Positions 7,806 through 57,583 of a DNA stretch of 64,000 nucleotides are shown piece by piece. The stretch spans positions 372,001 through 436,000 of the forward strand of contig MKVM01000003.1 in the NCBI GenBank assembly GCA_001898835.1, given 5' to 3'. Source of the DNA: Micrococcales bacterium 72-143. Lineage in GTDB: Bacteria > Actinomycetota > Actinomycetes > Actinomycetales > Microbacteriaceae. How positions within the stretch are numbered: the first letter of the stretch is position 1; each line of letters starts with the position of its first letter. Below the pieces are notes generated by a model. It had not been told where the DNA came from and did not search any database. It was given only the letters and a program-made list of their open reading frames with translations. A program made the translations under genes and the position numbers.

Positions 7806-10800
7806 TCAGCCCTCCCGACGGCGCAGGCGCGAAGCGACTGCGGCAGCACCCAGCAGCAGCGCGAGCAGCGCAGCGACCGCGACCCACGGGGTGGCGGGTC
7901 CGGCGCCGGTCCCGGCGAGGCCGGTGGCCGTGACCGTCAGCGCCGCGGATGCCGTTGCGCCGGTCTGCAGGTCGGTGACGGCGAGCGTGTGCGCACCCGC
8001 CGCAGTGCCCGCCGGGATCGTGACCGTGACCTCGATCGTTCCCGCCTGGGAGGCGGTGACGGTGGCGAGGGTCACCGGGGTGGAGTGCAGCACCAGCTCC
8101 ACCTCGCCGCCCGGGGTCAGCCCGCTCGCCGTGACGACCAGGCGGCCACCGGCCGCCACCGTCTGCAAGCTCAGGGCGAGGTCGATCGGCACGAGAGCGA
8201 CCGCTCCCGCGGTGAGGGTGCGCGACCAAGCCGCATACCCTGTCGCGGACGCCGTCACCTGCACGGTGAGCAGCTTCCCGACATCGCCCGTCGCGGGCGT
8301 GAAGGCGGGGCCGGTCGCGCCGGGCACCGCGGTCCCCGCGAGGAACCACTGGTAGCCGACGGTCGCCGCCGGGGTGAAGGTGCCCACCGTGACCGCGAGC
8401 GCACCGCCCACGAGCGGCTGCCCGGTGAGCGCCGGCTCCGCCGAGACGGCCAGCAGCCCCTGCTGCACGAGCCCCAAGTCGAGCGTCGCCACGGCATCCG
8501 AACGGTTCGGGGCGGAGGCCGTCACGACGACCGTGAGCGGCAGCCCCACATCCGCGAGACCCGGCGTGAACGTCAGGCCCGTCGCCGCGGGCACCGCGAT
8601 CCCGTCGAGGTACCACTGGTAGCCCACGGTCGCCCCGGACGGCGCGTAGCTGCCGGGCACCACGGATGCCGTGCCGCCGAGGCGCGCCTCACCTGCCCGC
8701 TGCGGCGCGGTGACCGTCTCCACGGGCACCTGGATCACCGTGCCGGCGTCGAGGGTGCGCGTCCACGTCGTGTAGCCGGGGCGCGTCGCCGTGACGACGA
8801 CCGTGAGCTGCCCGCCGAGGTCGCCCACGACGGGCGTGTAGGCGGATGCCGTGGCGCCCGCGATCGCACTGCCGTCGAGCGACCACTGGTAGCCGAGCGT
8901 CGCCGCCGGGGTGAAGGTGCCTACCGTCATGTCGACCGTCTCGCCCACGACCGGCGAACCCGAGAGCGTCGGCTCGGCCGATGCCGCGAGCACCCCCGGG
9001 GCGACGTTGCCGAAGTCCAGCGGCGTCGCCGCATCCACCCAATCGCCCAGCGTGTCGCTGTACGACGCGGTCACGACCGCCGTGAGCGACAGGCCCGCAT
9101 CGGATGCGGTCGGCACGTAGCTCGCGCCCGTGCCGACGGACACGCCGTCCACGAACCACTCGTACGACTCGCTCGCCGCGGCCGGAGTGTAGGCACCGGG
9201 GATCACCGTGAGGGTGTCGTCCACGCGCGCGGTGCCGGGGCCCTGCGGCGCGGTCACCGTCTCCACGAAGGGATCCGGCACCGTCACCGGGAGCTGCTCG
9301 ATCGCCGCGAGGTTGCCCGCGACATCCGTGGCCCGCGCCTGGATGACGTAGTTGCCCGCGCCGACGAGCGTGATCGGGCCCGTGTACGGCGTCCAGGACG
9401 CGTCGCCGAGCAGCTTCCACTCGACCGAGGCGACGCCGGAGCCCGCATCCGTCGCGGTCACGGTGACCTCGGCGTGCGCGCCGTTGGCGGCGACATCCGC
9501 GGTGAGGCCCACGGTCGGGGCGACCGAGTCGACCTTGATCGCGGCGACCGCGATCGCCCCGTTCACGCCGTCGCGCGCCGCGCGCGCCTCGACCGTGTGC
9601 TCGCCGTTCGCCAGGGCGGGCAACGTGACCGCGCCCGTCGCGCTCTCGGTGAGGTCCGTCCAGGCGCCACCGTCGACGCGGTACTGGATGACGCCGGGCG
9701 TCTGCAGCAGCACCGCGGCCTGGGCCGTCACGGTCGGGCTCGCCGGGTACCAGCCGGATGCCGGTACAGCGGGCGAGGCCGAGATCATCACCGCCGGCGC
9801 CTCGGGCACCGCGAGCGCCGCGATGTCGGACGCCGAGATGCGGCTCGAGTAGACCCGCAGCTCGTCGATGCCGCCCGTGAACCAGCCGGTGCCGTAGGTC
9901 GGCGCGCTGCCGACCGAGTCGACCTCGCTCGGGGTGCCCGCGACGAGGGTGTTGGAGCTGAACGCGACGCTGACCGCGGGCTTCGCGACTCCGTCAAGGT
10001 AGAGCGTGATGGTCTTGCCCGTGTAGTCGTAGACCGCCGCGATGTGGTGCCAGCGCCCGTCGTTCGGGTAGGCGAACAGTGCGCTGCGGTAGCTGTCGCT
10101 CGCCTGCGAACGGCCGGCGATCTGCAGCTGGTTGCCCTTGAAGTTCACGTCGATCCCCGCGCCGGCGGCGTTGATCCGCAGCCCGAGCACCCAGTTGCTC
10201 TCGGCGGTTCCCGAGGTCGGCAGGTTGGTCGGACGGATCCAGGCCGCGACGGTCGTCGCGGTCGCCCCGTTGAGCGACTTCACGAGCTGGTTGACCGCTC
10301 CCGTCGGGTTCGGCTGGATGACGCCGCGCCCGTTGCCGGGGAACAGCATCGCGTTGCCGCGCGGTCCGGGAGCCGTCGCCAGCGTCGAGCCGAGCACGCG
10401 CCCGTTGCCCGAGAGGTCGGGGTAGCTGTTCGCCGCGCTCGTCGCGTCGAACGACCAGGCGCCCACGAGGCTCGTGACCGTGAGTGGCACCGAGGTCGCG
10501 GTCGCGGAGACCGCGCCCGGAGCGGATGCCGTGGCGACGACGCGCAGCACGGTTCCGGCATCCGCCGCGACGATCGCGCGCGCGGCCGAGGTCGCGCCCG
10601 CGATGTTCGTGCCGTTGCGCTGCCACTGGTAGCTCACGGTCGCGCCGGCACTGGCCGTGGCGCTCGCGGTGAGCGTCTGGCCGACCGTCGGGGTGCCCGC
10701 CACGCTCACGAAGCCGATCGTGACGGAGGGCTGCACCGGCACGGAGACGACCGCGGAGACGACCGAGGTGCTCGTGCGGCCGATCGCGGACCCGGTGACC

Positions 10801-13800
10801 TGCACCGACACCTCCGCGCCGCCGTCCGAGGCCGTGAGCGTATACGTGGCACTCGTCGCGCCCGCGATCGGGACGCCGCCGCGCAGCCACTGGTAGCCGA
10901 GCGAGGCACCCGCGGGGTCGGTCGTGCCGACCGTCGCGGCGAGCGTCTGGCCGATCGTGGGCGTGCCCGAGATCGCCGGGGTCGGCACGCCGACCGCCGG
11001 GGCCGCCGAGGTCGAGAGCACGGCGCCCGTGAACACGCCCTGATCGAGGGTCGCGGACGACAGGTTCGAGTTGGCAAACATGCCGACGTCGAGCGGGCCG
11101 GAGTCGGCGCCGACGAGCGTGAGGGTGCCGATCGTGGTCCACGCCGCCGTCACCGAGGCGCGGGCGTAGCCGACGACCGTGGCGGCGTCGGTGCGCACGA
11201 GCCGCAACTGCACGGGAGCGGTGAGGGCCGTCTTGCTGCCCTCCCAGTCGATCCAGCCGTCGCCGTTGGAGTCACGCTGCAGGAAAACGCCGTTCTGGCT
11301 CGACACGACGAGCGCGCCGTAGCCGGTCGAGGGCCCGCTCGCGCGGGACAGGTCGTTGCGCACCAGGATGCCGGCCCGGGTGTCGAGCTTGGCGAGCTGG
11401 GTCATCGAGCTGAGCGTGACCTCGAGGGCACCGCCGACGGGGAGCGCATCCGCCTGGTAGACGGTGCTCACGGCGTCGGATGCGGTCCAGAGCCCGACGT
11501 TGCCGTCGCCGATCCGGAACGAGCCGGTGCCGAGCTGGCAGAACGAGGACGCGGCGGCCGGGCCCCACGCCGCGGTGTGCCACGGTGCGGCGACCGCGCA
11601 CTGGGCGGGGGCCGGGGTGAGGTACACCGTGTAGACGGCCGAGTGGGCTCCGTCAGCCGAGCTCAGCTTGACCTTCACCTGCGACGCGGAGCTCGAGACC
11701 TCCACGACGGCGCTCGCGTCGGTGGGCGTCGCCACGACCACGGGGGCCATTCCGCTGCCGGTGATCGAGTAGGTGGTCGTCCCGGACGAGAAGCCGGGCA
11801 CGCCGACCCCGTCGAGGGTGAGCGCCTGCAGGGTCAGGTCGGCGGGCGGAGCGTCCGCGATCGTGACGGGGAGGCTCCGGAACATCAGCAGGCCGACGTG
11901 CTTGGTCGTCGCGACGGTCGGACCCGTGCCGTTGTGGCCGTAGTACGTGAGCTTCGCCGTGGTCGAGCCGAGCGGTGCCGACAGAGTGAGGCGCAGCACC
12001 CCGTTGCCGGGGGAGGCGACCGACACGATCTGCGCGGACGTGCCCTCGAGGCCGAAGTCACCGGCCGGGTTGCCCGTCACGACGAGCGGGTCGCTCGTGT
12101 TCTGCAGTTGCACCTCGATGACGTTGGAGCTCGTCATCCCGGTGACGGATGCCGGGTTGGGCGCCGAGAGCCCCGCCCCGCTGCCGCCGAAGAAGTCGCG
12201 CTGCAGCACGCCGGTCGCCTGCTCCGCGATCTGCGAGTAACCGTTGGCGTAGGGGTAGTGGCAGCCGTCGTGCTCGGCGATGCCTGAGGTCGACAGCGTC
12301 GTCAGATGGTAGCCGGGGAAGGTGGCGGAGAGGGTGCGCTGCGCCTCACGGAGGTCGATGCCCGTGGTCTGCACGGCGCAGGAGTTGCGCACCTGGAAGG
12401 CGTAGTACTGGATATTCGCCGCAGCGCCGCCGCGTGCGAAGTCGCTCGTCCAGTCCTGCAGGAGCGCTCCGAATCCGGCGGTGTGCTCCGCGGCGCGGTT
12501 CTGGTCGCTCTCGCCCTGGTAGTAGAACAGCGCGCGCACCGAGCCGAGCAGTCCGGCGTCCTTCATCCGCAGGTACAGCCGACCGTAGTTGTTCGCCGAG
12601 TTTCCGGGGTTGGCGTCGTCGCGGGCGAAGTACTCGATGGCCTGGCCGCCGCGGGCACCGTTGATGAGTGCCACGGGGATGCCGGTCGAGTTCACGAGCT
12701 GCGCGGCCGCCTGCAGTGCCCAGATGCCCACGTGCCCCGCGTTCCAGCGGGTGCCGTTGTTGGAGGTCCCGACGAAGCCTTGCGCATAGTTCCAGGAGTG
12801 CTCGCCGACGGAGATCACCGGGCTCTGGTCGGGCGTGCCGTAGGAGCGCACCCATTCGGAGAGGTAGGCGTTCGCCGCGACATCCGCCTGCTGGCGCGCG
12901 ATGGCCTCGGCGTTGGACTGACCCTGCACGACGATGACGTCTCCCGCGAGCAGCCCCGTCCACTGGCCGGCGCTCATCGTGCCGGCCGCCGTGGTGACGA
13001 GCAGCTGCGCGTCGTACCGACGGGTCTCGGCGGTGATCGGCACGCTCACGGTGAACGCGCCGCCCGCGGCGGGAGCGACGGTGGCGGTCAGCGGCGTGAC
13101 ATCGCCCTGGCGCGTCAGACGCAGCTCCACCCCGGTGACCGAGGGGTCGGCTGTTCCCCGGACGATGACATCGGCCTTATTGGTGGTCGTGTCGCGCGGG
13201 TAGAGGCGCAGGTCTTCGGGGTGCTCGGTGAGCGAGACGAGGCTCTGGTGCACGAACACCGTCAAGGTGCGCGCCGTGTACGCGGCCCCGTTCTTGGCGA
13301 AGGTCCAGTCCGGGTTGGCGCCCGCCGACTGTCCGATGCCGATGTCGAGCGGCCCCTGGTTCCAGCCGTTGACCGCGAGCACGGTCTTCGGCGCCGCGGC
13401 ACCCGCGACGCCCTCGGCGACCGAGTGCACCTGGAAGGAGCCGTAGCTGCCGGTGGCCATCGGGGTGTCATCCGCGTCGTAGAGAGTTGCGGACGCCCCG
13501 GCGACCTGCCCGCTCGCTGTCGGTGTGTAGTCGAGGTTCCACATCTCGAGGTAGCCGGACGCCTGCGGTCCGGTCGTCACGCCCGGCACATTGGACTGGA
13601 CGTCGAGCCCCGAGACCCGCTCGCGGCGGATGTCGGTCGACGCGACGGGGATGCCGAGCTTCGAGGCGTCCGAGTTGTAGGCCTGCATCGAGGCGAGCAC
13701 CCAGTCGGTGCCGCTCGGCTTGGCGAGCTCGAGGCAGTAGCCCACCCGGTCGACGGCGCCGACCGTCGCCGTCGCGTCGTAGTCGTATACGCCACTCCAG

Positions 13801-16800
13801 GCGCCGACGGGAAGCTTCGCCTGTTCCACGGCCACCATGCCCGCCGCGCTCGCGGCCGCATCGCAGGAGGTCGGCGTGAGCGTGCCACCGCTGCCGCCGC
13901 CGTCGCGCATGGCGTAGAGCGCCTGGACGTCGGATGCGCTGAGCGCCTTTCCGAGCACGCGCATGTCGTCGAGTCGACCGGTGAAGGAGAGGCCGCTGGA
14001 GGGCGAGCCGCCGATCGTCGAGGGGTTCGTCGGCGTGCCCGGCGTGTAGGAGGTAGCGCTCCAGCTCGGGGTGACCCCGTTGCCGAAGTTCGGCGTCTGC
14101 TCGACCCCGTCGAGGTAGAGGCGGATCTGCTTGTTCTGGTAGTCGAGGATGGCGGCGATGTGGTGCCAAGCACCGTCGTTCGGGTACGCGAAGCGCTTCT
14201 GCTGGTAGCTGTCGCCCGCGGCCGAGCGGCCGGCGACGCGCAGGTTCTGCCCGTCGAAGAGCACGTCGACGCCGGCGCTCTGCGCGTTGATACGGGTGCC
14301 GAAGATCACGTTGTTCTCGCCGGATGCGGCGATCGCGGTGGGGCGGATCCAGCCGGCGACGCTGATCGCCTTCGCACCGGAGAGCTGCTCGTCGAGCTGG
14401 TCGCCGAGCACGACGCGCGTGGAGCCGCCGAGAGCGATCGAGCCGCCGACGGCGCCCGCCGAGGGCGTGCCCGTCCCGGTCGCGGTGTTGCCGTACACCG
14501 AGCTGTCGCCCCAGGTGCAGCAGGCGGTCTCGTCGAACTTCCAGTGGCCGACGAGGTCGCTGGAGACGACGTCGAACACGACGGAGATATCGCGCGTGGT
14601 GCCGTCCTGGGCGGTGATCCGCGCGACGCCGGTCGGTGTCGCGTTCGTCATGACCGGCTGGCTCACGACGGTCGCGGTCGCTTTCGGCGAGCGCGGCACG
14701 AGCTGGCTGATGGTGACGGCGGCGGGCGTCTTGCCCGGGAGTGCACCCGCCGTGACGTGGTAGGTGTTCACGCCGTCGGTGGGGTAGAGGAGGACGCCGT
14801 TGGACAGCACGAGCACCGTCGCGGAGGTGCTGTGGTCGGGGGCTGCCGGACGTTTCGCGATGAATGTCTGCACGCGGTTCGTCGCGCCCTGGGTGATCGT
14901 GACGTCGATGCGCTGGGTCTGCCCCGGCTGCAACGTGACCGACTGCGAGGCGGGGCTCGCCGTGACGCCGCCTGCCGTCGCGAACGCGAGCAGGGAGTTC
15001 TCCGAGGTGACGGTGACCGTCTGCACAGCCGCGCTCGGCGTGTACGCGCGTGCGGTGCCGTTGACGGTCACCCCGCTCAGGGAGGGTTGGGTCGGCGCGT
15101 ACAGCTCCGCGATCTGCGGGCCCGTCAGCGCGGTGCGCCACACGCGGAGCTCGTCGAGGTCGGCGGGAAGCAGTGCGCCCGAGGTGGCCGAGCCGACCCG
15201 GTCGTGGGCGGTCGGGTTCGCGACCTCGTAGCTGGGCGAGCCGAAGCTGACCGTGCTGCCGGCGGCATCCACCTCCGCACCGTCGATGTAGAGGTGCAGG
15301 GCGCCACCGACCAGGTCGGCGGACATCGCGACCTGGTGCCAGGCGCCATCCGTGGGGTAGGGGATGGTGCGCACGACGGCGGCACTGCCCGCGGATGGGC
15401 GCACCTCGGCGCGCAGCGTGTTGTCGCTTCGCAGCGAGAGCTCGACGCCGGTGGTGGTGCCGTTGACGGCCGTCTGCACGATGACCCCGTTGGAGGGGAT
15501 GGTCGTGCCCGCGCGCACCCACGACGACACCGTGAGGCCGGACGCGTTCCACAGGGTCGGGTGCAGCTGGAAGCCGAGGTCGATGCCGGGGTTGGCGCCG
15601 CTGCTCGGGCGGAAGGCACCACCGGAGCTGCCGTCGACGACGGCGCTGCCCGCGACGTTCTCGGCGACGATGCTGTGGGAGGGCGTCACATCCGCGGCGA
15701 GGGTCGTGAGGTTCGTCGGGTCGTCGAAGCCGAGGTGCAGCACCTCGTCACCCCGGCCGAGCCAGGTGCGGAAGTTCGCGTAGCGATGGAACGTCATCTG
15801 GTTCGTGTCGTGATTGCTGGAGGCACCGTTGGATGCGGTGCGCGAGACCAGCAGCAGCTCGTCGCCGTCGATCTGCATCGTCGGCTGGGAGAAGGCGCTG
15901 CGCCGCACCGAGTCCTCCCAGCTGAATCGCTGGTCGTCGGTCGCGAGGTTGGTGACGAACTTCCAGCCGGTGAGGTCGTACGACTCGTAGAGGGAGAGCA
16001 CGTTGCGCTGGTGGGAAAGCCCCGAGTAGGTGTACGTCGTCTCCTGATTGCCGACCATGAGGTAGCGGTCGGAGATCGCGTCGTACAGGACGTAGAACTT
16101 GTTGATCGGCACACCCTCGGGCCAGGCGACGCCGCCCACCTCGGTGAGCGTCGTGCCGTCGTCGCTGATGCGGGCCATGAAGGCCTGCTCGGGGTGGCCG
16201 TGCCAGCGCAGGAGGTTTACGACGTGGCCGGTGCGGTCGACCACAGGGTTCCCCTCGAGCACGAGCGAGGTCGTGCCCTCGGTGGACTTCGTCCAGCTCG
16301 CCGGGTTCAGCAGGTCGGCGCCGAGGTCGGCCGAGATCGCCAGCGCGCGGAAGTTGCCCCACGATCCTCCGAGGTAGTGCTCGTAGGTCTTGTAGATGCG
16401 CCCGTTGGCGATCGCGATGGGCGTATCGCCCGTGTGGTAGGTACCCGAGAACAGCACTGTCGGCTGGGTCCAGCTGAGGCCGCCGTCGGTGCTCCGGGAG
16501 ATGACGATGTTGTCGTACTCGTCGGCGGCGCCGATGCCCATGAGGTAGACGGCATCACCGAGTTCGAAGATCGTGGCCCAGAACATCGGCTCGACCACCG
16601 CGGTGCGGGTCCAGGTGTCTCCCTTGTCGGTGCTGCGCAACACCTCCGTGTAGCGCTTGCCCCCGGGGCCGAAGCTGCTGCTACCGCTACCGAAGCGGTT
16701 GGATGCGGCGAGGTAGCTGCCATCGGCGAGCACCTCGAGGGTGGGCGAGCCGACGAAGGCGCCCGAGGACGCCGGCGAGTAGCTGAGCACCGACTCCTCG

Positions 16801-16949
16801 CTCACGCCGAAGGGCGTCGCCTCCGCGGAGCTCCCCGCGACGAACACGAGGGCGGAGACGCCGAGCGCGAGGGCGACAGTCGCGGCGGTGGCGCGCGCGA
16901 GGCGCGACCGGATGCCGACGGGTGCGGTGACCGACGTGGCTGACTTCAT
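7806..16949 (-). CDS. Giant LAXTG-anchored surface enzyme: Asp-box propeller, SGNH esterase, LamG and Ig-like repeats
   Basis: 3047 residues. Modules in order: signal peptide (1 to about 44); sialidase-like beta-propeller with Asp boxes STDKGDTW and STDGGLSW (to about 395); LamG 1 (about 400-618); a cadherin-like segment; LamG 2 (about 800-1010); a linker domain; and an SGNH/SASA-type esterase from about 1335. The esterase shows GQSNAE, NGARGG, QGESDQN and the DGCH acid-base pair near 1560. After that come a galectin-like region, two Ig-like repeats, LamG 3 (about 2160-2375), more Ig-like repeats with YQW motifs, then LAGTG at about 3009, a membrane helix and RRRREG. The start at 16949 has an AAAGGAA Shine-Dalgarno. 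The protein probably binds and trims an acylated extracellular glycan. Propeller specificity is unresolved; sialidase is only one option. Confidence 0.85.
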   Translation of the reverse strand: MKSATSVTAPVGIRSRLARATAATVALALGVSALVFVAGSSAEATPFGVSEESVLSYSPASSGAFVGSPTLEVLADGSYLAASNRFGSGSSSFGPGGKRYTEVLRSTDKGDTWTRTAVVEPMFWATIFELGDAVYLMGIGAADEYDNIVISRSTDGGLSWTQPTVLFSGTYHTGDTPIAIANGRIYKTYEHYLGGSWGNFRALAISADLGADLLNPASWTKSTEGTTSLVLEGNPVVDRTGHVVNLLRWHGHPEQAFMARISDDGTTLTEVGGVAWPEGVPINKFYVLYDAISDRYLMVGNQETTYTYSGLSHQRNVLSLYESYDLTGWKFVTNLATDDQRFSWEDSVRRSAFSQPTMQIDGDELLLVSRTASNGASSNHDTNQMTFHRYANFRTWLGRGDEVLHLGFDDPTNLTTLAADVTPSHSIVAENVAGSAVVDGSSGGAFRPSSGANPGIDLGFQLHPTLWNASGLTVSSWVRAGTTIPSNGVIVQTAVNGTTTGVELSLRSDNTLRAEVRPSAGSAAVVRTIPYPTDGAWHQVAMSADLVGGALHLYIDGAEVDAAGSTVSFGSPSYEVANPTAHDRVGSATSGALLPADLDELRVWRTALTGPQIAELYAPTQPSLSGVTVNGTARAYTPSAAVQTVTVTSENSLLAFATAGGVTASPASQSVTLQPGQTQRIDVTITQGATNRVQTFIAKRPAAPDHSTSATVLVLSNGVLLYPTDGVNTYHVTAGALPGKTPAAVTISQLVPRSPKATATVVSQPVMTNATPTGVARITAQDGTTRDISVVFDVVSSDLVGHWKFDETACCTWGDSSVYGNTATGTGTPSAGAVGGSIALGGSTRVVLGDQLDEQLSGAKAISVAGWIRPTAIAASGENNVIFGTRINAQSAGVDVLFDGQNLRVAGRSAAGDSYQQKRFAYPNDGAWHHIAAILDYQNKQIRLYLDGVEQTPNFGNGVTPSWSATSYTPGTPTNPSTIGGSPSSGLSFTGRLDDMRVLGKALSASDVQALYAMRDGGGSGGTLTPTSCDAAASAAGMVAVEQAKLPVGAWSGVYDYDATATVGAVDRVGYCLELAKPSGTDWVLASMQAYNSDASKLGIPVASTDIRRERVSGLDVQSNVPGVTTGPQASGYLEMWNLDYTPTASGQVAGASATLYDADDTPMATGSYGSFQVHSVAEGVAGAAAPKTVLAVNGWNQGPLDIGIGQSAGANPDWTFAKNGAAYTARTLTVFVHQSLVSLTEHPEDLRLYPRDTTTNKADVIVRGTADPSVTGVELRLTRQGDVTPLTATVAPAAGGAFTVSVPITAETRRYDAQLLVTTAAGTMSAGQWTGLLAGDVIVVQGQSNAEAIARQQADVAANAYLSEWVRSYGTPDQSPVISVGEHSWNYAQGFVGTSNNGTRWNAGHVGIWALQAAAQLVNSTGIPVALINGARGGQAIEYFARDDANPGNSANNYGRLYLRMKDAGLLGSVRALFYYQGESDQNRAAEHTAGFGALLQDWTSDFARGGAAANIQYYAFQVRNSCAVQTTGIDLREAQRTLSATFPGYHLTTLSTSGIAEHDGCHYPYANGYSQIAEQATGVLQRDFFGGSGAGLSAPNPASVTGMTSSNVIEVQLQNTSDPLVVTGNPAGDFGLEGTSAQIVSVASPGNGVLRLTLSAPLGSTTAKLTYYGHNGTGPTVATTKHVGLLMFRSLPVTIADAPPADLTLQALTLDGVGVPGFSSGTTTYSITGSGMAPVVVATPTDASAVVEVSSSASQVKVKLSSADGAHSAVYTVYLTPAPAQCAVAAPWHTAAWGPAAASSFCQLGTGSFRIGDGNVGLWTASDAVSTVYQADALPVGGALEVTLSSMTQLAKLDTRAGILVRNDLSRASGPSTGYGALVVSSQNGVFLQRDSNGDGWIDWEGSKTALTAPVQLRLVRTDAATVVGYARASVTAAWTTIGTLTLVGADSGPLDVGMFANSNLSSATLDQGVFTGAVLSTSAAPAVGVPTPAISGTPTIGQTLAATVGTTDPAGASLGYQWLRGGVPIAGATSATYTLTASDGGAEVSVQVTGSAIGRTSTSVVSAVVSVPVQPSVTIGFVSVAGTPTVGQTLTASATASAGATVSYQWQRNGTNIAGATSAARAIVAADAGTVLRVVATASAPGAVSATATSVPLTVTSLVGAWSFDATSAANSYPDLSGNGRVLGSTLATAPGPRGNAMLFPGNGRGVIQPNPTGAVNQLVKSLNGATATTVAAWIRPTNLPTSGTAESNWVLGLRINAAGAGIDVNFKGNQLQIAGRSQASDSYRSALFAYPNDGRWHHIAAVYDYTGKTITLYLDGVAKPAVSVAFSSNTLVAGTPSEVDSVGSAPTYGTGWFTGGIDELRVYSSRISASDIAALAVPEAPAVMISASPAVPASGWYPASPTVTAQAAVLLQTPGVIQYRVDGGAWTDLTESATGAVTLPALANGEHTVEARAARDGVNGAIAVAAIKVDSVAPTVGLTADVAANGAHAEVTVTATDAGSGVASVEWKLLGDASWTPYTGPITLVGAGNYVIQARATDVAGNLAAIEQLPVTVPDPFVETVTAPQGPGTARVDDTLTVIPGAYTPAAASESYEWFVDGVSVGTGASYVPTASDAGLSLTAVVTASYSDTLGDWVDAATPLDFGNVAPGVLAASAEPTLSGSPVVGETVDMTVGTFTPAATLGYQWSLDGSAIAGATASAYTPVVGDLGGQLTVVVTATRPGYTTWTRTLDAGTVIQVPVETVTAPQRAGEARLGGTASVVPGSYAPSGATVGYQWYLDGIAVPAATGLTFTPGLADVGLPLTVVVTASAPNRSDAVATLDLGLVQQGLLAVSAEPALTGQPLVGGALAVTVGTFTPAATVGYQWFLAGTAVPGATGPAFTPATGDVGKLLTVQVTASATGYAAWSRTLTAGAVALVPIDLALSLQTVAAGGRLVVTASGLTPGGEVELVLHSTPVTLATVTASQAGTIEVTVTIPAGTAAGAHTLAVTDLQTGATASAALTVTATGLAGTGAGPATPWVAVAALLALLLGAAAVASRLRRREG

Positions 16950-16994
16950 TGTCGTTCCTTTGGTGGTGCGGCTGTGTGGCGGGAATGTAAAGGG

Positions 16995-17008
16995 TGTTGA
17001 CGTCAACA
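16995..17008. promoter_or_regulatory. LacI-type operator 1
   Basis: TGTTGACGTCAACA, a perfect 14-bp palindrome with the central CG typical of LacI-family sites, lies 46 bases before the start codon of the 3047-residue enzyme. The same core recurs at 21687-21704. Confidence 0.75.
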
Positions 17009-17025
17009 TCTAGGGTGAATCGAGG

Positions 17026-17064
17026 GCCCGTGCCGGGTGGCCCACAGGCTCACCCGGCACGGGC
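17026..17064 (-). terminator. Terminator of the GH30 gene
   Basis: GCCCGTGCCGGGTG (17026-17039) pairs perfectly with 17051-17064 around an 11-base loop, starting five bases after the GH30 stop codon. It separates the two surface-enzyme genes, consistent with each having its own promoter and operator. Confidence 0.75.
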
Positions 17065-17069
17065 GGGGG

Positions 17070-20000
17070 TCATCGGCTCGCGGGTCCGCGACGACGGCGG
17101 ATCGCGAGCAGGGCGCCCGCGGCCAGCAGCAGCGTCGCGAGCAGCGCGGTGTCCCGCACGGTATCCGGCACGCCGGTGCCCGCGAGGTCGCCCGCCGCCG
17201 CGAGCACGGTGATCGGCGCCTCGGCCGTCGCGCTCGTCGTGAGATCGCGCACCACGATGTGGTGGGCGCCCGGCGCGGTTCCGCTCGGGATCCGCGCCGT
17301 CGCGCTCAGGGTGCCCGAGCTCGTCGCGGTGAAGGTGCCGAGCGCGACCGGGATGGAGTGCAGCTCGAGCGCAACCGCGCCGTTCGGCGTGAGCCCGCTC
17401 ACCTCCACCACGAGGGTGTCGCCGCGCGTCACCGTCGTCGCGGACAGCTCGAGGTCGAGCGTGCCCACCGGGGTGGAGGTCACGAACTCGCCCGCCGAGG
17501 AGGCGGTCGTGCCGGTGAACCCGGTGGCGGATGCCGTCACGACGACCGCGAGCCGCTTGCCCGCGTCCGAGGCGACGGGCGTGTAGCTGGCACCGTCGGC
17601 ATCCGGGACGTCGACGCCGTCGAGCGTCCACTGGTAGCCGAGCACGGCTCCGGCCGGGTCGGCGACGACGGATGCCGTGAGCGGCACCCCGACAACGGGC
17701 GCCGCGGAGAGCGCCGCCGAGAGCGCGATCTTGCGGTCGAAGCTCAGCTGGTACGTCGTCGTGGTCACGCCGTCCCACGCGGTCACCACGACGGTCGCGA
17801 CGGGCGTGCCGCCGCTCGCCTGGGTGAGCTGCACGGTGGCGTGGGCGCCCGCGGCGGTCGCCCCGACGACGGGGAACGCCGATCCGGTCACCGGCACGGT
17901 GTAGCTCGTGACCGAGGGCGAGAAGCCGTCGACCGGCTGCCCGCCGACCGTGAGGCTCGCGAGGCTCGCGTCGTGGAAGCCCGTGGGAGCCGCGATCGTC
18001 GCCGGGGTGCTCGTCGCGGTGGTGCCCGTGAAGCCGGTCTTGCTCGCCGTCACGACGACGCGGAGCACGCCGCCGGCCTGCGCCGGCGTCGGCACGTAGC
18101 TCACGGAGGTGGCCCCCGGGATGTCGACGCCGTCGAGCGTCCACTGGTAGCCGACCGTCGCATCCGAGGGGTCGAGCTCGGCGACCGCCGACACCGTGGA
18201 GCCGACCTCGACGGTGCCGGAGATCGAGGCCGCCGCCGCGACCGTGCGCGCGATCGTGAGGATGTAGCTCGCGGTCGTGCCATCCTCGGCGACCGTCGTG
18301 ATCGTCGCCACCCCGCCGTTGCCCTCACTCGGCTGCACGACGCTCACGCGCGCCTTGGTGTCGAGGGGGAAAGCCTGCACGACGGGCAGGTGGGCGCCGA
18401 TCGCGTCGAAGGTGCATGCGCTCAGCGCGAGGTTGCAGCCGGCGTCCACACCGTCCACCCGCAGCTCCGCGAGCCTCGTCAGCGACGACGTCGCGGCGAC
18501 GGGCGTGAAGATCTGCACCTCGGAGACGATCATGTGGGTGTTCGAGGTCTGCCGGGTGAGCACGACGCGGAAGCCGTCGGCCGTCACGGGCGGGAAGGTG
18601 AGGGCGACGATCGGCCCGACCGTCCCCATCCCCGAGCTGTACGGCGTGCTGAGCGCCGGGTTCGCGGTGACTGTGCCGGTCACCGTGGTCCAGGCGCCAC
18701 CCGGCACGCGGTACTGGAACTGGATCGCCGAGGGCCAGCTGTTGGTGCCGTCCGCGTAGAGGTACACCGTGCTGCCCTGGACGAGCTGCGCGGGGAAGGT
18801 GTACGTCAGCGTGTCCGAGGCGTTCTGAGTGCCGCTGCGCCAGTTCGACCAGCCCTTGTCGGTGAGGTTGTTGTTCCGCGTCCGGTCGACGCCGTAGGAG
18901 GCCGACTCGGTGTACGTCGCGGAGGCGACCGTGGTCGAGTCGGGGGCGATGTTGCGCCCCGTCGAGTCGGCCACGATGACCGAGAGCGTCGCCGGGGTGG
19001 GCACCCCGTCGAGGGACGCCGTGCCGGGCACCGTCACGATGCCGACCGAGGCGAAGGACGCGTCGCTCAGCCCGCTCCAGTTCCAGGTGACGGGGGCGGC
19101 GAAGGACAGCTCGGATGCGCCCTGCCGCGCGCGCACGGTCGTCGGCGCGCTCGCCTGCACAGCCGCGAGGCTCAGGCCCTTGACGACGGTCGCGGATGCG
19201 GGATCGACCGAGCCGAGCGTGCCGACGTCCACGAGCAGCGTCGTCGCGAACGCCCGCCCGAGCGGATCGGTCGCGGTGCCGGCGACCTCGACGCGGCCGG
19301 GGGCGTCCCACGCGGATGCGGGGATCGCATCCCACGTCACGGGGACGGCGGCGCCGGTGCCCCACAGGTAGGTGGCGGCGACGGTCGCGGGCGGCGTCAC
19401 GGGCACGCCGACGCTCGTGTGAGCGGTGACCGTGACCTGCTTCGGCGCGAGGTCGCGCACCTTCCAGCGCTGGTTGCCGCCGCCGGAGTTGCCCCACCAG
19501 CCGACGCTCGCGTTCTCGGCCGTCGAGCTGCTGCCGACATCGAGCACGCTCTCCATCGCAACATTGAGCAGGGCGATGTCCGTGCCGTTGGTCGAGGTCA
19601 CGATCCACTGGGTCTGCGGGTTCGCCGCGGCATCCGCGAGCGAGACGCCCGTTCTCAGATCGGTGTTCGAGGAGGTCGCGCCGAGTACCCGGCCGTCGCC
19701 TGCGACGACGACGAAGCGGCGGTCGCTCGCGTCGCCCACCTGGTGGAAGGTCCAGGCCTGGCCCGCCGAGGAGGAGTTGAGGGTCGTGATCCGGGTCGGC
19801 GGGTTCGTCATCGCGGTCGCGGTAAGCGCCTTGCCGCTCTGCACTCCGACGAGCTGGTAGGTGCCGCCGTCGACGATCTTCATGGCGGCGTCCGAGACGC
19901 CCGAGACGCCCGAGACGACGAAGGTCGTCACCGACTTGGCGGGCACCGTGAGCTTCGCGGATGCCGTGGTCGCGTTCACCGGGACCGCCGCGCCCTGCAC

Positions 20001-21650
20001 GAGCGCGTTCCCGGTCGGGTTCGCCGCCGAGGATGCCTGGGTCGTCACGTAAGGGGTGACGCTCGCACCCGGCGCGATGGCGCCGAACTTCGAGAGGTCG
20101 AGCGTGACATCCGCCGCCGTGGTGCCGGAGTTCGTGTACACGAGGGTCGTCGTCCGGCCGTCGGCCGACACGGCCGCCGTCGTGGAGGTGTTGTCGACCG
20201 CGATGAGCGAGTCGCCCGGGCGGATGAAGTGGGTGTAGTTGCGGATGGTGTTGTACTTCGAGTTGACCTCGACCCCGCACGCGGGCGCGCCCGTCGACAC
20301 GCCGCCCGCGGCATCCACGCGGCGCTTGGACTTCCACACCTCGACGCCGCCCTCGTCGTAGGGCTTGCAGTCGAGGTCGATGAACACCGAGCCCCAGTTG
20401 AGGTTCTCGCCCGAGGGCTGCATGTTGTAGAGGTCCTCGACCGGCTGCCAGAGCACCCAGGCCTTGGGCTGGAGCTCCCGCAGGTCGTCGTTGATCCGGC
20501 CCGCGATGCCGATGCCGTTCTCGATCGAGGTCGGGTTCCAGCCGTTGACCCAGCTGCCCTCGATCTCGCTCATCCACAGCGGCTTGTCGGCCGCGCGCGC
20601 GAAGTCGCCCACCTGGAGGCGGCCCGAGGTGCCGTAGGTGTGCACGTTGAGCTGGGAGATCGCATCCCGCACGGCCTGCGTGTAGGCGGCGTTGGTCCAG
20701 TTGGTCTTGAAGATGTCGGGGTTGGTCTCGTCCATCGCTGAGACGACGGCGTCGGTGTCCGCGCCGGCCAGGGCGGCGGCGAGCGCCTGCACGAGCGCGG
20801 CCTGGCGGGCCGGGCCTACGTGCATGCCCTCCTGGCGTCCGCCGGACGGCTGGCCGTTCGCGACGTTGGGGCCGCTCGTGCTCCAGTAGTTGGTGTTGGG
20901 CTCGTTGAGCGGGTCGATCGTGGAGAACGAGATGCCGTAGGTCGCCTCGAGGTACTCGGCGACGCGCACGAGGTACTGGGCGAACTTGTCGATCGCCGCG
21001 GGCTTGAGCTGCTCGGCCGTCGCGTTCGTGCCGCCCGAGACGTAGCCCGACTCCGTCATGAAGTAGGGCGCGGAGTTGGCGAACGCCTCCCAGTGGGTGA
21101 TCGGCTGACGCGGGTCCTCCGCGAGGCGCTGCACCCACCAGCGCTGGGTCGCATCCGCGTCGAAGTTGTACATCGAGTCGTCGGAGGAGTTCCACGCGGC
21201 GAGCAGATCGTTGCGGCTCCACCAGTTGGTGCCCACGCCGCCGTAGACGCCGTCGTCACCGTTGGGGTCCGCCTTCCACCAGCCCTGCACGGCGCCGCCC
21301 GGGCGCAGGTAGTCCCAGACCCCGGAGGCGTTGCCTCCGCCGATGTTGTAGCGGGCGATGTTGAGGTTGAGGCCGTCCTCACCGAATACGGCCTGGTACA
21401 GCTGCTCCTTGAGCGCGTCGGGGTAGCCGCCGGTCGCGTTGGCGAACCAGACGAGCGACGTGCCCCAGCCCTCGAAGTCGGGGTTCGCGTACCAGGGGTT
21501 GGGCGAGAGCGAGACCTGGGTCGGGGATGCGGCGGCAGCGGGCGCGGGAGCCTCGACCAGGCCGGTGGCCGTCACGGCCAGCACAGCGGCTGCGGCGACG
21601 GCGGTCACCCGTCGGATCAGGACCCGGGGCTTGGCGGATACGCGTGTCAC
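17070..21650 (-). CDS. LAXTG-anchored GH30 endo-beta-1,6-galactanase-like enzyme with lectin and Ig-like domains
   Basis: 1526 residues. A signal peptide (1 to about 40) is followed by a GH30 (clan A) catalytic barrel (to about 480, plus beta-sandwich to about 580). The barrel begins GWGTSLVWFANATGG and has acid/base Glu in IDPLNEPNTNYW (about 249) and nucleophile Glu in LWMSEIEGSW (about 361). Its opening resembles the galactanase subfamily. Next come a ricin-type trefoil lectin (about 593-730, two QxW motifs), two Ig-like type-4 modules, a discoidin-like module (about 900-1050), cadherin/Ig-like repeats, LAGTG (about 1489), a membrane helix and RRRRGPASR. The GTG start has AGGAG nine bases upstream. 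It likely cuts beta-1,6-galactan side chains at the cell surface. Confidence 0.87.
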   Translation of the reverse strand: MTRVSAKPRVLIRRVTAVAAAAVLAVTATGLVEAPAPAAAASPTQVSLSPNPWYANPDFEGWGTSLVWFANATGGYPDALKEQLYQAVFGEDGLNLNIARYNIGGGNASGVWDYLRPGGAVQGWWKADPNGDDGVYGGVGTNWWSRNDLLAAWNSSDDSMYNFDADATQRWWVQRLAEDPRQPITHWEAFANSAPYFMTESGYVSGGTNATAEQLKPAAIDKFAQYLVRVAEYLEATYGISFSTIDPLNEPNTNYWSTSGPNVANGQPSGGRQEGMHVGPARQAALVQALAAALAGADTDAVVSAMDETNPDIFKTNWTNAAYTQAVRDAISQLNVHTYGTSGRLQVGDFARAADKPLWMSEIEGSWVNGWNPTSIENGIGIAGRINDDLRELQPKAWVLWQPVEDLYNMQPSGENLNWGSVFIDLDCKPYDEGGVEVWKSKRRVDAAGGVSTGAPACGVEVNSKYNTIRNYTHFIRPGDSLIAVDNTSTTAAVSADGRTTTLVYTNSGTTAADVTLDLSKFGAIAPGASVTPYVTTQASSAANPTGNALVQGAAVPVNATTASAKLTVPAKSVTTFVVSGVSGVSDAAMKIVDGGTYQLVGVQSGKALTATAMTNPPTRITTLNSSSAGQAWTFHQVGDASDRRFVVVAGDGRVLGATSSNTDLRTGVSLADAAANPQTQWIVTSTNGTDIALLNVAMESVLDVGSSSTAENASVGWWGNSGGGNQRWKVRDLAPKQVTVTAHTSVGVPVTPPATVAATYLWGTGAAVPVTWDAIPASAWDAPGRVEVAGTATDPLGRAFATTLLVDVGTLGSVDPASATVVKGLSLAAVQASAPTTVRARQGASELSFAAPVTWNWSGLSDASFASVGIVTVPGTASLDGVPTPATLSVIVADSTGRNIAPDSTTVASATYTESASYGVDRTRNNNLTDKGWSNWRSGTQNASDTLTYTFPAQLVQGSTVYLYADGTNSWPSAIQFQYRVPGGAWTTVTGTVTANPALSTPYSSGMGTVGPIVALTFPPVTADGFRVVLTRQTSNTHMIVSEVQIFTPVAATSSLTRLAELRVDGVDAGCNLALSACTFDAIGAHLPVVQAFPLDTKARVSVVQPSEGNGGVATITTVAEDGTTASYILTIARTVAAAASISGTVEVGSTVSAVAELDPSDATVGYQWTLDGVDIPGATSVSYVPTPAQAGGVLRVVVTASKTGFTGTTATSTPATIAAPTGFHDASLASLTVGGQPVDGFSPSVTSYTVPVTGSAFPVVGATAAGAHATVQLTQASGGTPVATVVVTAWDGVTTTTYQLSFDRKIALSAALSAAPVVGVPLTASVVADPAGAVLGYQWTLDGVDVPDADGASYTPVASDAGKRLAVVVTASATGFTGTTASSAGEFVTSTPVGTLDLELSATTVTRGDTLVVEVSGLTPNGAVALELHSIPVALGTFTATSSGTLSATARIPSGTAPGAHHIVVRDLTTSATAEAPITVLAAAGDLAGTGVPDTVRDTALLATLLLAAGALLAIRRRRGPASR

Positions 21651-21686
21651 CTGTGACTACTCCTCGAACGGCGTCGTTGCTGCGGG

Positions 21687-21704
21687 GATGTTGACGTCAA
21701 CATC
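21687..21704. promoter_or_regulatory. LacI-type operator 2
   Basis: GATGTTGACGTCAACATC is a perfect 18-bp palindrome, 37 bases upstream of the GH30 start and in the divergent gap to the LacI gene. It shares 14 central bases with the site at 16995-17008. Confidence 0.8.
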
Positions 21705-21774
21705 GCGGAGGCGATTCAAGCACGCCGCATCACCCTTCGTCAACGCGGTGTTTCACTCGGGCGCCGGATGGTGG

Positions 21775-21831
21775 CCGAATCGTTGCAATCGGTAACCGAA
21801 TCGTTGCGAATCCAGGCGGGACCCGTACGAT
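21775..21831 (+). promoter_or_regulatory. Promoter of the LacI gene with direct repeats
   Basis: TTGCGA (21804-21809) and TACGAT (21826-21831) are 16 bases apart, and the ATG lies seven bases after the -10, so the mRNA may be leaderless. CCGAATCGTTGC occurs twice (21775-21786 and 21796-21807), the second copy overlapping the -35. Confidence 0.5.
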
Positions 21832-21838
21832 TTCGCCC

Positions 21839-22888
21839 ATGACTCATGAGGCGGAGGCTCCCCCGCGCGCCGAGCGGCGCCGATCCGGTCCGTCGATGAA
21901 CGACGTCGCCCGACTGGCCGGCGTCTCCGGCCAGACCGTCTCCCGCGTCACCAACGGATCGCAGTCCGTGCTGCCGGAGACCCGGCGCCGTGTTATCGAT
22001 GCCATGGACGCGCTCGGCTACTCCCCGAACTCGGCGGCGCGTGCGCTGCGGAGCGGGACCTTCGACACCATCGGCGTCATCGCGCACAAACTCGCACGAA
22101 CGGGCGAATCGCGCACCGTCGAGGCGGTGGTCGAGGCCGCGCGCGATCGCGGCCATACAGTGACCCTGATCGACGTCGACTCGCCCTCGACCGCGCGCCT
22201 GACCGAGGCGGCGACGCGCCTGTCGCGGCAGGCCATCGACGGGCTCGTCATCATCCGCGCAGAGGTGCGAGAGGCCGCGCGCCTCACCTTGCCTCGCGAC
22301 CTGCCTGTGGTGGTGTCCGACTCCGTCTTCATGGGCCGGCTCCCCGCGGTGAGCACCGACCAGGAGGGCGGCACGCGAGCGGTCGTGGAACACCTTCTCG
22401 AGCTCGGCCACCCCACCGTCCACCACATCGCCGGACCGAGCGACTCCCTCCCCGCCCGGGTGCGGCGACTCGCCTGGGAGCAGAACCTGCGGGCGAGGGG
22501 GCGCACGGTGCCCGAAGTGATCCAGGGCGACTGGACGTCCGAGTCCGGCTATGCCGCAGGTGCCCGGATCGCCGCGGATCCCTCGGTGACGGCGGTCTTC
22601 TGCGCCAATGACGAGATGGCGGCGGGCCTACTCGTCGCATTGCATGAGCGGAGCGTCGATGTACCCGGCGACGTGTCCGTGGCGGGCTTCGATGACGTGC
22701 CACTAGCCCGGTTCCTCTGGCCGCCGCTGACCACGGTGCGCCAGAGCTTCGACGTCATCGGGCGGCGCCTCGTCGACACCCTGATGGACCAGATCCGCGA
22801 CGGCGGCACGGTCTCCAGCTACCGCCAGCTCGTTCCGGCCGATCTGATCGTCCGCGCCAGCACGGGAGCGCATCGGCCCCGGCGGTAG
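21839..22888 (+). CDS. LacI-family transcriptional regulator of the surface glycan locus
   Basis: 349 residues. The LacI headpiece MNDVARLAGVSGQTVSRVTNG (from about residue 20) contains the DNA-recognition helix and the hinge helix PNSAARALRSG follows. A periplasmic-binding-protein-like effector domain (about 80-340) has the usual IDGLVII, HHIAGP, AVFCANDEMAAGLL and VSVAGFDD motifs. It is divergent from the GH30 gene and convergent with the corA-like gene, whose stop abuts its own. Two palindromes of LacI type lie upstream of the two surface enzymes and none of that sequence lies at its own promoter, so those enzymes are the likely targets. The effector sugar is unknown. An internal ATG at 21896 is the alternative start. 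Confidence 0.92.
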   Translation: MTHEAEAPPRAERRRSGPSMNDVARLAGVSGQTVSRVTNGSQSVLPETRRRVIDAMDALGYSPNSAARALRSGTFDTIGVIAHKLARTGESRTVEAVVEAARDRGHTVTLIDVDSPSTARLTEAATRLSRQAIDGLVIIRAEVREAARLTLPRDLPVVVSDSVFMGRLPAVSTDQEGGTRAVVEHLLELGHPTVHHIAGPSDSLPARVRRLAWEQNLRARGRTVPEVIQGDWTSESGYAAGARIAADPSVTAVFCANDEMAAGLLVALHERSVDVPGDVSVAGFDDVPLARFLWPPLTTVRQSFDVIGRRLVDTLMDQIRDGGTVSSYRQLVPADLIVRASTGAHRPRR

Positions 22889-56500: not shown

Positions 56501-57583
56501 GTCGGCGCCGAGGCCGTTGATCGCCGCGACCACCTTGGCCTTCTGCTTCGCGAACTGCTCCGCGTTCGCAGCGCCGCGGGCGGCGCCGCCGAAGGTCGTG
56601 AAGTAGTTGAAGACGTTGAAGCTGCCGAACTGCACGTCGCCGCCGACCTCGGGGGCCGCCGCGGGACGCGGGTTGAGCGTCTCGAAGGTGGGCTTGTACT
56701 CGGCCGGGCTGGCGTCCGTGAGCGGCACCTGCGGCTGCAGGCGCCAGTTGTCGAAGCCGTAGCCGAGCACCATCGCCTTCGCCGGCGGCACGAAGCGGTC
56801 GCCGTTGCGCACGACCGTGCCCGCGGTGAAGTACGGCTGGTCGCCGACGTGCGCGCTGTTGTCGACGCGGATCGAGTAGCCGTCGTCGACGATGAGGCGC
56901 CGGGCGAGGTTCGCCGCGGCGATCGCGTTCGCGGCGTCGCCGGCATCCGTCGTCTCGGTCGACTTGACGAGCTCGCCACCGGCCGAGAGCCACAGCGAGC
57001 CGAAGTTGTACAGCTCGTGGCTCGAGGCGAGACGGTAGTCGCCCGTGGGCTGCACGAGCATGCCCTCGAGCGCCTCGCGGTCGCCGCCCAGCAGGGTGTC
57101 GGGCAGCGGGGTGGCGGCGGGGAGGCCCGCGCCCGCCTGCAGCAGTTCGAACGCGGATGCGGTGGTCGCGGTGATCTGGGTCTGCCCGCTGTTCTCGCCC
57201 GCGGTGCCGGTGACCCGGATCAGGTCGCCGACGGCGACCTTCGGGTAGGCCTGGTTGAAGTAGACGAAGAGCCCGTCGCTCGCCCCGGGCGTCGCGTCGG
57301 TCTCACCCCCCGATCCGGCGGTCTGCAGGTACAGCCCGCGGTAGTTGGAGGGGGCCGCGTAGTAGCCGGTGACGACGCCCTCGACGGTGACGGTCTGGCC
57401 GTTCAGCGGGGTGGTCGCGCCGGTGCCCTGCACCTCGGCGATCGTATGGGTGGTGTCGGCCGCGAGCGCGGGGGTCGCGCTCAGCGAGGCCAGCCCGAGG
57501 GCTGCGATGGCCGTCGCGGCGACGACGGCGAGGCGACGGCGCGCGCTGGGGCGCGACCGGTCGAGGGGTGTGGGAGTTGTCAT
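53588..57583 (-). CDS. Secreted ExeM/NucH-type nuclease fused to UshA-type 5'-nucleotidase
   Basis: 1331 residues. A signal peptide (about 1-45, ending PALAADT) is followed by an OB-fold-like module (about 45-150, TVTVEGVVTGYY). An endonuclease/exonuclease/phosphatase domain follows (about 315-615) with FGSFNVFNYF, EEIENS, LGDFNAYGQEDP and SSDHDPVVV. A metallophosphatase then starts at about 620 with LLSINDFHGRLE, FGNHEFDKG and ISGHTHLAYDF. It is joined to the 5'-nucleotidase C-terminal domain (about 925-1130, SFLASGGDNF) and two Ig-like modules. It could degrade DNA to nucleotides and then to nucleosides plus phosphate outside the cell. All metal and catalytic motifs look intact. There is no LAXTG or membrane anchor at the end. 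Confidence 0.9.
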   Translation of the reverse strand: MTTPTPLDRSRPSARRRLAVVAATAIAALGLASLSATPALAADTTHTIAEVQGTGATTPLNGQTVTVEGVVTGYYAAPSNYRGLYLQTAGSGGETDATPGASDGLFVYFNQAYPKVAVGDLIRVTGTAGENSGQTQITATTASAFELLQAGAGLPAATPLPDTLLGGDREALEGMLVQPTGDYRLASSHELYNFGSLWLSAGGELVKSTETTDAGDAANAIAAANLARRLIVDDGYSIRVDNSAHVGDQPYFTAGTVVRNGDRFVPPAKAMVLGYGFDNWRLQPQVPLTDASPAEYKPTFETLNPRPAAAPEVGGDVQFGSFNVFNYFTTFGGAARGAANAEQFAKQKAKVVAAINGLGADVVALEEIENSAVLGETPDEALGDLVAGLNAAAGAGTWDFVPTPDAVNGAGNDVITTAIIYKPSVVTPVGDSFADADAAWSIARKPIAQTFDVGADRLVTVVANHLKSKSPPSGNTAPEPADGQGFFNAERVAQAQRLATFVDGITSDPQKGPDVILLGDFNAYGQEDPVQALTAAGFVDLVPTKAPGQYTYTFNGELGSLDHALVTPSLAASVTGVGVWGINSAEWSDRGYAYAATDGTSPYRSSDHDPVVVGVTAAKPPVTIDLLSINDFHGRLEASSTTAGAAVLGGMVRSYEAQNANTLFVGAGDLIGASTFTSFIQDDEPTIAALNEIGLDASSFGNHEFDKGRADVDDRILEHADWPYLAANLYDRATGKPAYQEYELREFEGVTIGFIGAVTEDLTELVSPAGIASLEVKEVVPEVNRVAAQLSDGDPSNGEADILVLLVHEGAATTDISSATDDSNFGRIVNGADPDIDMIISGHTHLAYDFDVPIPGTDRTRPVISSGQYGAMYGHSRIVYDPATEALTIDTENLNLIGAFPPDPAVAAIVADAVEVAKELGSVSLGSITQDIRRAVQTNGSENRGGESTIGNLISDAQLAATEDLSTQVAIMNPGGIRADLVYASSGAGDPDGNVTYAEAALIQPFANTLVTMNLTGAQLKAVLEQQWQPAGAARPFLKLGLSHGLEYVYDPAAAAGSHITAITLNGEPVTDDQVIKVVTNSFLASGGDNFGAFTQGTGVADSGRIDLDAFVAYIGENSPVAPDTAQRAVGARLSAPADGTAYRAGEQVTAQLSSLLFSTGGPASGDATISLGGQVLGTGATTLQIVDTTDEQGTATVTFTIPAGVEGAQTLTIAGPGGTEVTLPIEVAESSEPQEPVGTRTSGSAPLLVWGSPVNYKVTVRTDDGSPAVGTLVIRDGLKTVATVQLTAADNGKVTVKLGKLKRGIHLLTAQFSGDGFDPSLSWPSPVIVL

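What the first reader, a model, noticed from the sequence alone, without database searches (positions are those of the whole stretch)
16949..22888. LacI regulon of two giant surface glycan enzymes marked by the same palindrome
TGTTGACGTCAACA occurs at 16995-17008 and inside the 18-bp palindrome at 21687-21704. Each copy lies within 50 bases of the start of one of two LAXTG-anchored enzymes, and a LacI regulator is divergent from the second. A perfect 14-bp match at both genes is unlikely by chance. I infer one small regulon for attack on a galactan-type, possibly acylated, polymer at the cell surface.
Basis: partly seen in the sequence, partly recalled or inferred. Interest (0 to 1): 0.75.

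Follow-up and report, generated by a model that had tools for sequence, protein, structure and literature searches.

The report
LacI-controlled surface galactan-degrading enzyme pair
Two very large surface enzymes, one of them a plant-galactan cutter, share one DNA switch next to a sugar-sensing repressor gene, and many related bacteria carry the same switch at the same cutter and repressor genes, so this looks like a real but fairly conventional sugar-use regulon.

Summary
TGTTGACGTCAACA occurs at 16995-17008 and 21689-21702 and nowhere else in the 3.33-Mb genome within one mismatch. The regulon reading is well supported for the galactanase gene. The 17070-21650 protein matches a solved GH30_5 endo-beta-1,6-galactanase, and 64 of 78 relatives of its catalytic domain carry TGTTNACGTNAACA (at most 1 mismatch) upstream, against 0 of 78 for the reversed pattern. 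Of LacI genes in the fetched loci, 72 of 76 with the S-x-Q-TVSR recognition helix have such a site at their own promoter, against 0 of 23 with another helix. Best reading: this LacI represses both giant genes and a galactoside releases it. The 7806-16949 gene is the weak point: its propeller is rare (2 of 398 family genomes, own included), and its two homologous loci closest in sequence lack the palindrome, so footprinting does not test its operator. Its parts match two neighbouring genes beside a galactanase in Actinomyces polynesiensis, which argues for a shared substrate. Unlike several relatives, this regulon has no transporter or GH35 enzyme; a LacZ/ABC cluster with its own LacI lies about 28 kb away. 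New member of a known kind.

The parts
16995..17008 (.). operator 1, TGTTGACGTCAACA, 45 bp before the start codon of the 3047-aa gene
   Evidence: on the - strand TACATT (16984-16989), a possible -10, lies 5 bp downstream of it (by eye; consensus scan found no promoter)
21687..21704 (.). operator 2, 18-bp palindrome GATGTTGACGTCAACATC, 14-mer core 21689-21702, 38 bp before the galactanase start codon, in the divergent region shared with lacI
   Evidence: relatives have their proximal site at a similar distance
17070..21650 (-). 1526-aa anchored GH30_5-like endo-beta-1,6-galactanase with RicinB lectin and Big_4 modules
20170..21530 (-). galactanase catalytic region; E250 and E362 are the expected acid/base and nucleophile
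7806..16949 (-). 3047-aa anchored protein: BNR propeller, three Laminin_G_3 stretches, SASA esterase domain
15750..16832 (-). propeller domain (residues 40-400) of the 3047-aa protein
12384..12941 (-). SASA esterase domain (residues 1337-1522), with GQSN and GESD motifs
21839..22888 (+). LacI-family regulator, recognition helix GVSGQTVSRV
7905..7919 (-). LAGTG sorting motif of the 3047-aa protein
17172..17186 (-). LAGTG sorting motif of the galactanase

Best explanation
A local LacI-type repressor, encoded at 21839-22888, binds TGTTGACGTCAACA as a dimer and shuts off two genes: the divergent endo-beta-1,6-galactanase and the giant accessory protein beyond it. Operator 2 sits about where transcription of the galactanase gene should start; operator 1 sits just upstream of a possible -10 element. 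When galacto-oligosaccharides cut from a beta-1,6-galactan (side chains of type II arabinogalactan) reach the cytoplasm, a galactoside binds the repressor and both surface enzymes are made. Shown here: the two sites, their uniqueness in the genome, the recurring trio of this regulator class, this palindrome and this galactanase, and the conserved catalytic residues. Inferred: the binding itself, repression rather than activation, the galactoside inducer, the natural substrate, the role of the 3047-aa protein as debranching and deacetylating partner, and uptake of the inducer by a transporter outside this regulon.
For: Only two places in the genome within 1 mismatch, reversed control 0. 56 of 78 galactanase relatives have an exact TGTTNACGTNAACA upstream and 64 of 78 one with at most 1 mismatch; reversed control 0 of 78. 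One representative per 80% identity cluster: 15 of 24 with a site. LacI genes with the S-x-Q-TVSR helix, the window's own included: 72 of 76 with a site at their own promoter; other helices 0 of 23. Of 859 other gene starts in the same loci 111 have a site, 103 of them lacI or its close neighbour. The window's LacI is the only one of this genome with both that helix and that site. In the alignment to lac repressor six sugar-pocket positions are the same (the list of contacts is recalled). Even palindrome with central CG, placed 30-140 bp before the start codon, is what PMC4052901 reports for most LacI-family sites (passages).
Against: No binding or expression data. Only one site at each gene, whereas many relatives have two. 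14 of 78 relatives have no site; six of these (L050, L055, L059, L061, L063, L064) have neither a site nor a LacI of this class in the locus. The operator of the 3047-aa gene has no footprint support: its homologues in L064 and L176 lack it. Counts include many congeners; at 70% clustering 5 of 10. The promoter elements are read by eye; the consensus scan found none.
Confidence: 0.8

Rival explanations
1. Only the galactanase gene is under this LacI; the palindrome before the 3047-aa gene is a chance or relic site, and the two enzymes are not one regulon.
For: The homologues of the 3047-aa protein in L064 and L176 show no such palindrome, and the gene is too rare to footprint (2 of 398). The flanks of the two sites differ, so one is not a copy of the other with its surroundings.
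Against: An exact copy of the consensus 45 bp before that start codon, in a genome with no third copy even at 1 mismatch, two genes away from its regulator; the same protein parts sit beside a galactanase in Actinomyces polynesiensis.
Confidence: 0.12
2. The palindromes are read by another LacI paralogue of the genome (of the LacZ/ABC cluster, GLSLQTVSRV, or L152, GVSHQTVSRV), alone or together with the local one.
For: These two paralogues share the S-x-Q-TVSR helix, and the LacZ/ABC cluster has a related double site, TGGTGACGTTAACA and TGTGAACGTCACCA.
Against: Neither has an exact site at its own promoter; in relatives the site goes with the 45-64% identical LacI next to the galactanase.
Confidence: 0.1
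3. The 3047-aa protein is a sialidase with sialate O-acetylesterase, and the pair attacks a sialylated glycan rather than plant galactan.
For: Fold matches to sialidases (8gn6, E=3.8e-12), a SASA domain, and the closest homologue found in an Actinomyces.
Against: Where sialidases have Arg-Ile-Pro (recalled, placed by eye) all seven aligned homologues read Gly-Ser-Pro. The fold matches GH93 arabinofuranosidase 2w5n just as well (TM 0.66 both ways), and the best sequence match among solved structures is an arabinofuranosidase, though weak (E=0.0011).
Confidence: 0.08

Closest known systems
Local LacI-family carbohydrate regulons (Ravcheev et al. 2014, PMC4052901; passages seen)
   Same: LacI regulator, even CG-centred palindrome 30-140 bp before the start codon, few target genes next to the regulator
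   Different: Targets here are only two giant anchored enzymes; the cited passages name no GH30 galactanase regulon
LacI/galactanase loci of related actinobacteria found here, e.g. Cellulomonas telluris L057
   Same: LacI of the same helix class, same palindrome, homologous galactanase
   Different: L057 adds two transporter-permease-like genes, a binding protein and a GH35 enzyme; the window's genome has no GH35 and its best match to that binding protein is 28% identical
GosR (earlier GalR) galactan regulator of bifidobacteria (PMC4746261; passages seen)
   Same: Local regulator of galactan use in Actinobacteria
   Different: Its sequence and motif were not compared here; beta-1,4-type galactan is the recalled substrate
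Endo-beta-1,6-galactanase Sa16Gal30A, GH30_5 (24td; PMC13431644, passages seen)
   Same: Catalytic region homologous at E=8e-25 with the catalytic glutamates kept
   Different: The window's protein is about three times longer, with lectin and Ig-like modules and a LAGTG anchor

Membership tests
LacI-family local regulon | LacI HTH plus sugar-binding domain in the regulator | tested here: met
   PF00356 5.9e-17, PF13377 6e-35
LacI-family local regulon | palindromic operator at the target promoters, rare elsewhere in the genome | tested here: met
   two places within 1 mismatch
LacI-family local regulon | operator conserved at orthologous targets | tested here: met
   galactanase 64 of 78; for the 3047-aa gene not met in the two homologous loci read
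LacI-family local regulon | binding and ligand-dependent release | not testable with these tools
   needs EMSA and expression data
GH30_5 endo-beta-1,6-galactanase | sequence match to characterised members | tested here: met
   24td, E=8e-25; note that Pfam gave no GH30 hit for the protein
GH30_5 endo-beta-1,6-galactanase | acid/base and nucleophile Glu | tested here: met
   E250 and E362 by the alignment, paper numbering Glu217/Glu320, positions
GH33 sialidase (propeller of the 3047-aa protein) | Arg-Ile-Pro motif with the first arginine of the triad | tested here: not met
   Gly-Ser-Pro in all 7 aligned sequences; motif recalled and placed by eye
GH33 sialidase (propeller of the 3047-aa protein) | sialidase-type propeller fold | tested here: met
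   the fold is shared with GH93 (2w5n)
SASA esterase | Pfam family match above the curated cut-off | tested here: met
   PF03629 43.9 bits, cut-off 24.8; solved-structure matches only weak
sortase-anchored surface protein | LAXTG, hydrophobic stretch, basic tail | tested here: met
   both C-termini
sortase-anchored surface protein | cognate sortase in the genome | not tested
   no search made

The most novel reading that the evidence does not exclude
The 3047-aa protein is a new kind of arabinogalactan-active multi-enzyme: a propeller hydrolase without the sialidase arginine, joined in one chain to an O-acetylesterase that is a separate gene in Actinomyces polynesiensis. It was gained horizontally and wired into the local galactan regulon by an operator that arose at its promoter, which would make it a traceable case of a regulon gaining a member.
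Probability: 0.3. Interest if true: 0.55.

Novelty: new member of a known kind. Interest (0 to 1): 0.4.

Why it matters
It gives a directly testable regulator, operator and enzyme assignment for beta-1,6-galactan (type II arabinogalactan) breakdown across Microbacteriaceae and several other actinobacterial genera. The listings of my searches for such a regulon or for the 14-mer show no title or abstract opening that describes one; few of the listed papers were opened. It also puts a rare giant propeller, lectin and esterase protein of unknown activity into a defined substrate context.

Tried and rejected
Larger regulon from loose matches: at 3 mismatches there are 65 places in the genome against 9 for the control, many of them GTCGAC-type palindromes. 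With positions 5 and 10 free and 1 mismatch only three extra places remain: about 37 bp before a gene at L147:3893-5467 that looks like a sugar kinase with another LacI beside it (by eye), before the LacZ/ABC cluster, and about 77 bp before the gene starting at 53260 (RecQ-like by eye). I did not add them to this regulon.

Sialidase reading of the propeller: lowered after the alignment. Pfam gives no GH30 hit for the galactanase; the assignment rests on the solved-structure search. NCBIfam named nothing for the galactanase; for the 3047-aa protein only an OmpL47-type domain passed its cut-off. Consensus promoter scans found nothing. The solved-structure search with the esterase region gave only weak matches (best E=0.0052 to an unrelated FimH chain; sialic acid acetylesterase at 0.28). 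The lac repressor pocket comparison uses contact residues from recall.

Rows dropped before counts. L099 of 79 loci (upstream too short). LacI hits spanning fewer than 200 query residues or starting after query residue 60, and repeats with an identical core; 7 LacI without a helix call are in neither the 76 nor the 23. The galactanase loci are the best 80 kept of 415 candidates, many of them congeners, so counts are not independent; by cluster at 90, 80 and 70% identity the numbers are 35 of 45, 15 of 24 and 5 of 10. Gene calls outside the window come from my own codon-usage script, not from an annotation.
Full report
The observation. TGTTGACGTCAACA is present exactly at 16995-17008 and 21689-21702; nothing else in the window comes within 2 mismatches, and 0 of 100 shuffles gave two. 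The assembly that holds the window (3,330,479 bases, 6 contigs) has no third place with up to 1 mismatch, and the reversed pattern gives 0. With positions 5 and 10 left free and 1 mismatch allowed, three further places appear; at 3 mismatches there are 65, against 9 for the control.

The genes. The galactanase gene (17070-21650, -) encodes 1526 aa. Pfam sees accessory modules only (Big_4 and RicinB above cut-off; F5/8C and Cadherin-like below). The catalytic region matches the solved secreted endo-beta-1,6-galactanase 24td at E=8e-25. The paper on that structure places the catalytic pair at Glu217 and Glu320 (passages); counting along the alignment these are E250 and E362 here. The 3047-aa gene (7806-16949, -) has an N-terminal BNR propeller, three Laminin_G_3 stretches and a SASA esterase domain. 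Both proteins end in LAGTG, a hydrophobic stretch and a basic tail. The regulator (21839-22888, +) is a complete LacI-family protein; its best solved relatives are an entry named ancestral LacI transcription factor and then lac repressor.

Footprinting. The scan of named genomes with the galactanase catalytic region found 415 candidates, of which the best 80 (79 loci) were kept. They are mostly Microbacteriaceae but include Cellulomonas, Georgenia, Arthrobacter, Actinomyces and a Streptomyces. In the 78 with enough upstream sequence, 56 have an exact TGTTNACGTNAACA and 64 one with up to 1 mismatch; the reversed pattern occurs in 0. Many have two sites; of 41 successive pairs 18 are 14 bp apart, 7 are 20-22, 10 are 34-36 and 6 have other spacings. 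One representative per 80% identity cluster gives 15 of 24 with a site. Of the 14 loci without a site, in four whose gene order I read (L057, L060, L112, L121) the galactanase lies downstream of transporter-like genes and the site is between them and a divergent LacI. L113 and L117 also have sites beside a LacI, and L122 and L123 have one before a LacI just upstream. The other six (L050, L055, L059, L061, L063, L064) have neither a site nor a LacI of this class in the locus, so the wiring is not universal.

Regulator and operator go together. Among 106 non-identical LacI genes in the fetched loci, 72 of 76 with an S-x-Q-TVSR helix have a site (at most 1 mismatch) at their own promoter, 0 of 23 with another helix, and 7 had no helix call. 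The window's own regulator is one of the 72. The four exceptions are L133, L177 and two paralogues of the window's own genome, L152 and L156. Of 859 other gene starts in the galactanase loci 111 carry a site, and 103 of those are lacI or its close neighbour. In six whole genomes the exact degenerate pattern occurs 2, 0, 4, 5, 2 and 4 times (G000, G029, G045, G116, G102, G050), with no reversed match. By position, all places in G050 and G102, three of four in G045 and three of five in G116 fall in the LacI/galactanase locus.

What the relatives add. In Cellulomonas telluris (L057; LacI 64% identical) the site lies between LacI and a run of two permease-like genes, an SBP_bac_1 binding protein, a GH35 enzyme and the galactanase (the permeases by sequence start only). 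Some Microbacterium and Agromyces loci look alike and add a gene resembling a GH51 arabinofuranosidase (by sequence start only). The window's genome has no GH35, and its best match to that binding protein is 28% identical (E=5.5e-19). About 28 kb from the galactanase promoter it has a cluster of LacI (42% to the window's), a LacZ-type GH2 enzyme, two permeases and a binding protein, with the double site TGGTGACGTTAACA/TGTGAACGTCACCA before the binding protein gene. My reading is that uptake and cytosolic hydrolysis are left to that cluster while the window's regulator keeps the surface enzymes. This is inference.

The 3047-aa protein. Its propeller domain is rare: 2 of 398 genomes of the family and 5 of 396 of the order, each count including the window's genome. 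The galactanase too is absent from the other 8 genomes of the genus (1 of 9). The closest propeller homologue (70%) lies in Actinomyces polynesiensis (L064), directly after a galactanase gene and before an esterase homologue. There the propeller-laminin part and the esterase are separate reading frames; in the window they are one chain. Another homologue (67%) is in G029, which has a galactanase on a different contig. Of the four more distant genomes one, G467, has a galactanase. Neither L064 nor the G029 contig shows the palindrome. The AlphaFold2 model (mean pLDDT 81.8, pTM 0.85) matches sialidases (down to E=3.8e-12) and the GH93 arabinofuranosidase 2w5n (TM 0.66 both ways). The place of the sialidase Arg-Ile-Pro motif reads Gly-Ser-Pro in all seven homologues (motif recalled, placed by eye). 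I favour an arabinofuranosidase-like debranching role over sialidase, at low confidence.

Mechanism. In five relatives whose upstream sequence I printed (L046, L047, L052, L053, L065) the distal palindrome is followed after 2 bp by a TANNNT, and in the four of them with a second site it begins 50-66 bp before the start codon (elements read by eye). That suits a repressor that blocks the promoter and the early transcript. The window's operator 2 begins 52 bp before the start codon, like the proximal site, with TTGACG, 18 bp and TTGAAT upstream of it; operator 1 has TACATT 5 bp downstream. Both are readings by eye, and the consensus scans found no promoter. Six sugar-pocket positions equal those of lac repressor (contacts recalled), so a galactoside inducer is likely.

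Literature. Passages only were read of PMC7889515, PMC4052901, PMC8424115, PMC13431644, PMC4746261 and PMC5928203; other papers were seen as listings. The 14-mer itself is in 0 papers of the library, which lacks most subscription journals.

Verdict. A real, well-supported local regulon, ordinary in kind. The unusual parts are its reduction to two giant surface enzymes and the rare fused protein.

Noticed in passing
window 21770-21807: A 17-nt direct repeat, GGTGGCCGAATCGTTGC and GGTAACCGAATCGTTGC, 21 bp apart, lies between operator 2 and the lacI start; its 12-base core occurs exactly only there in the window. It may be a second regulator's site.
   Followed up: partly
L145 2960-10282 (G000:C3:357959-365282): LacI, LacZ-type GH2 enzyme, two permeases and a binding protein with an abutting double site before the binding protein gene, a candidate beta-galactoside uptake cluster.
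   Followed up: partly
L147 5505-5518 (G000:C1:1209504-1209517): TGTTCACGTTAACG lies about 37 bp before a sugar-kinase-like gene (by eye) with a LacI of helix GVSHITVSRV next to it, probably a different LacI regulon with a similar motif.
   Followed up: no
galactanase loci L046-L124: Paired operators occur at a few preferred spacings: 14 bp (abutting), 20-22 and 34-36 bp, perhaps for side-by-side or looped repressor dimers.
   Followed up: no
L068: A 3.8-kb contig filed as Stenotrophomonas maltophilia carries an actinobacterial-type galactanase (60%) with the palindrome; likely contamination of that assembly.
   Followed up: no
window 53588-57583: Another large secreted-looking protein, 1331 aa on the - strand, not examined.
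   Followed up: no
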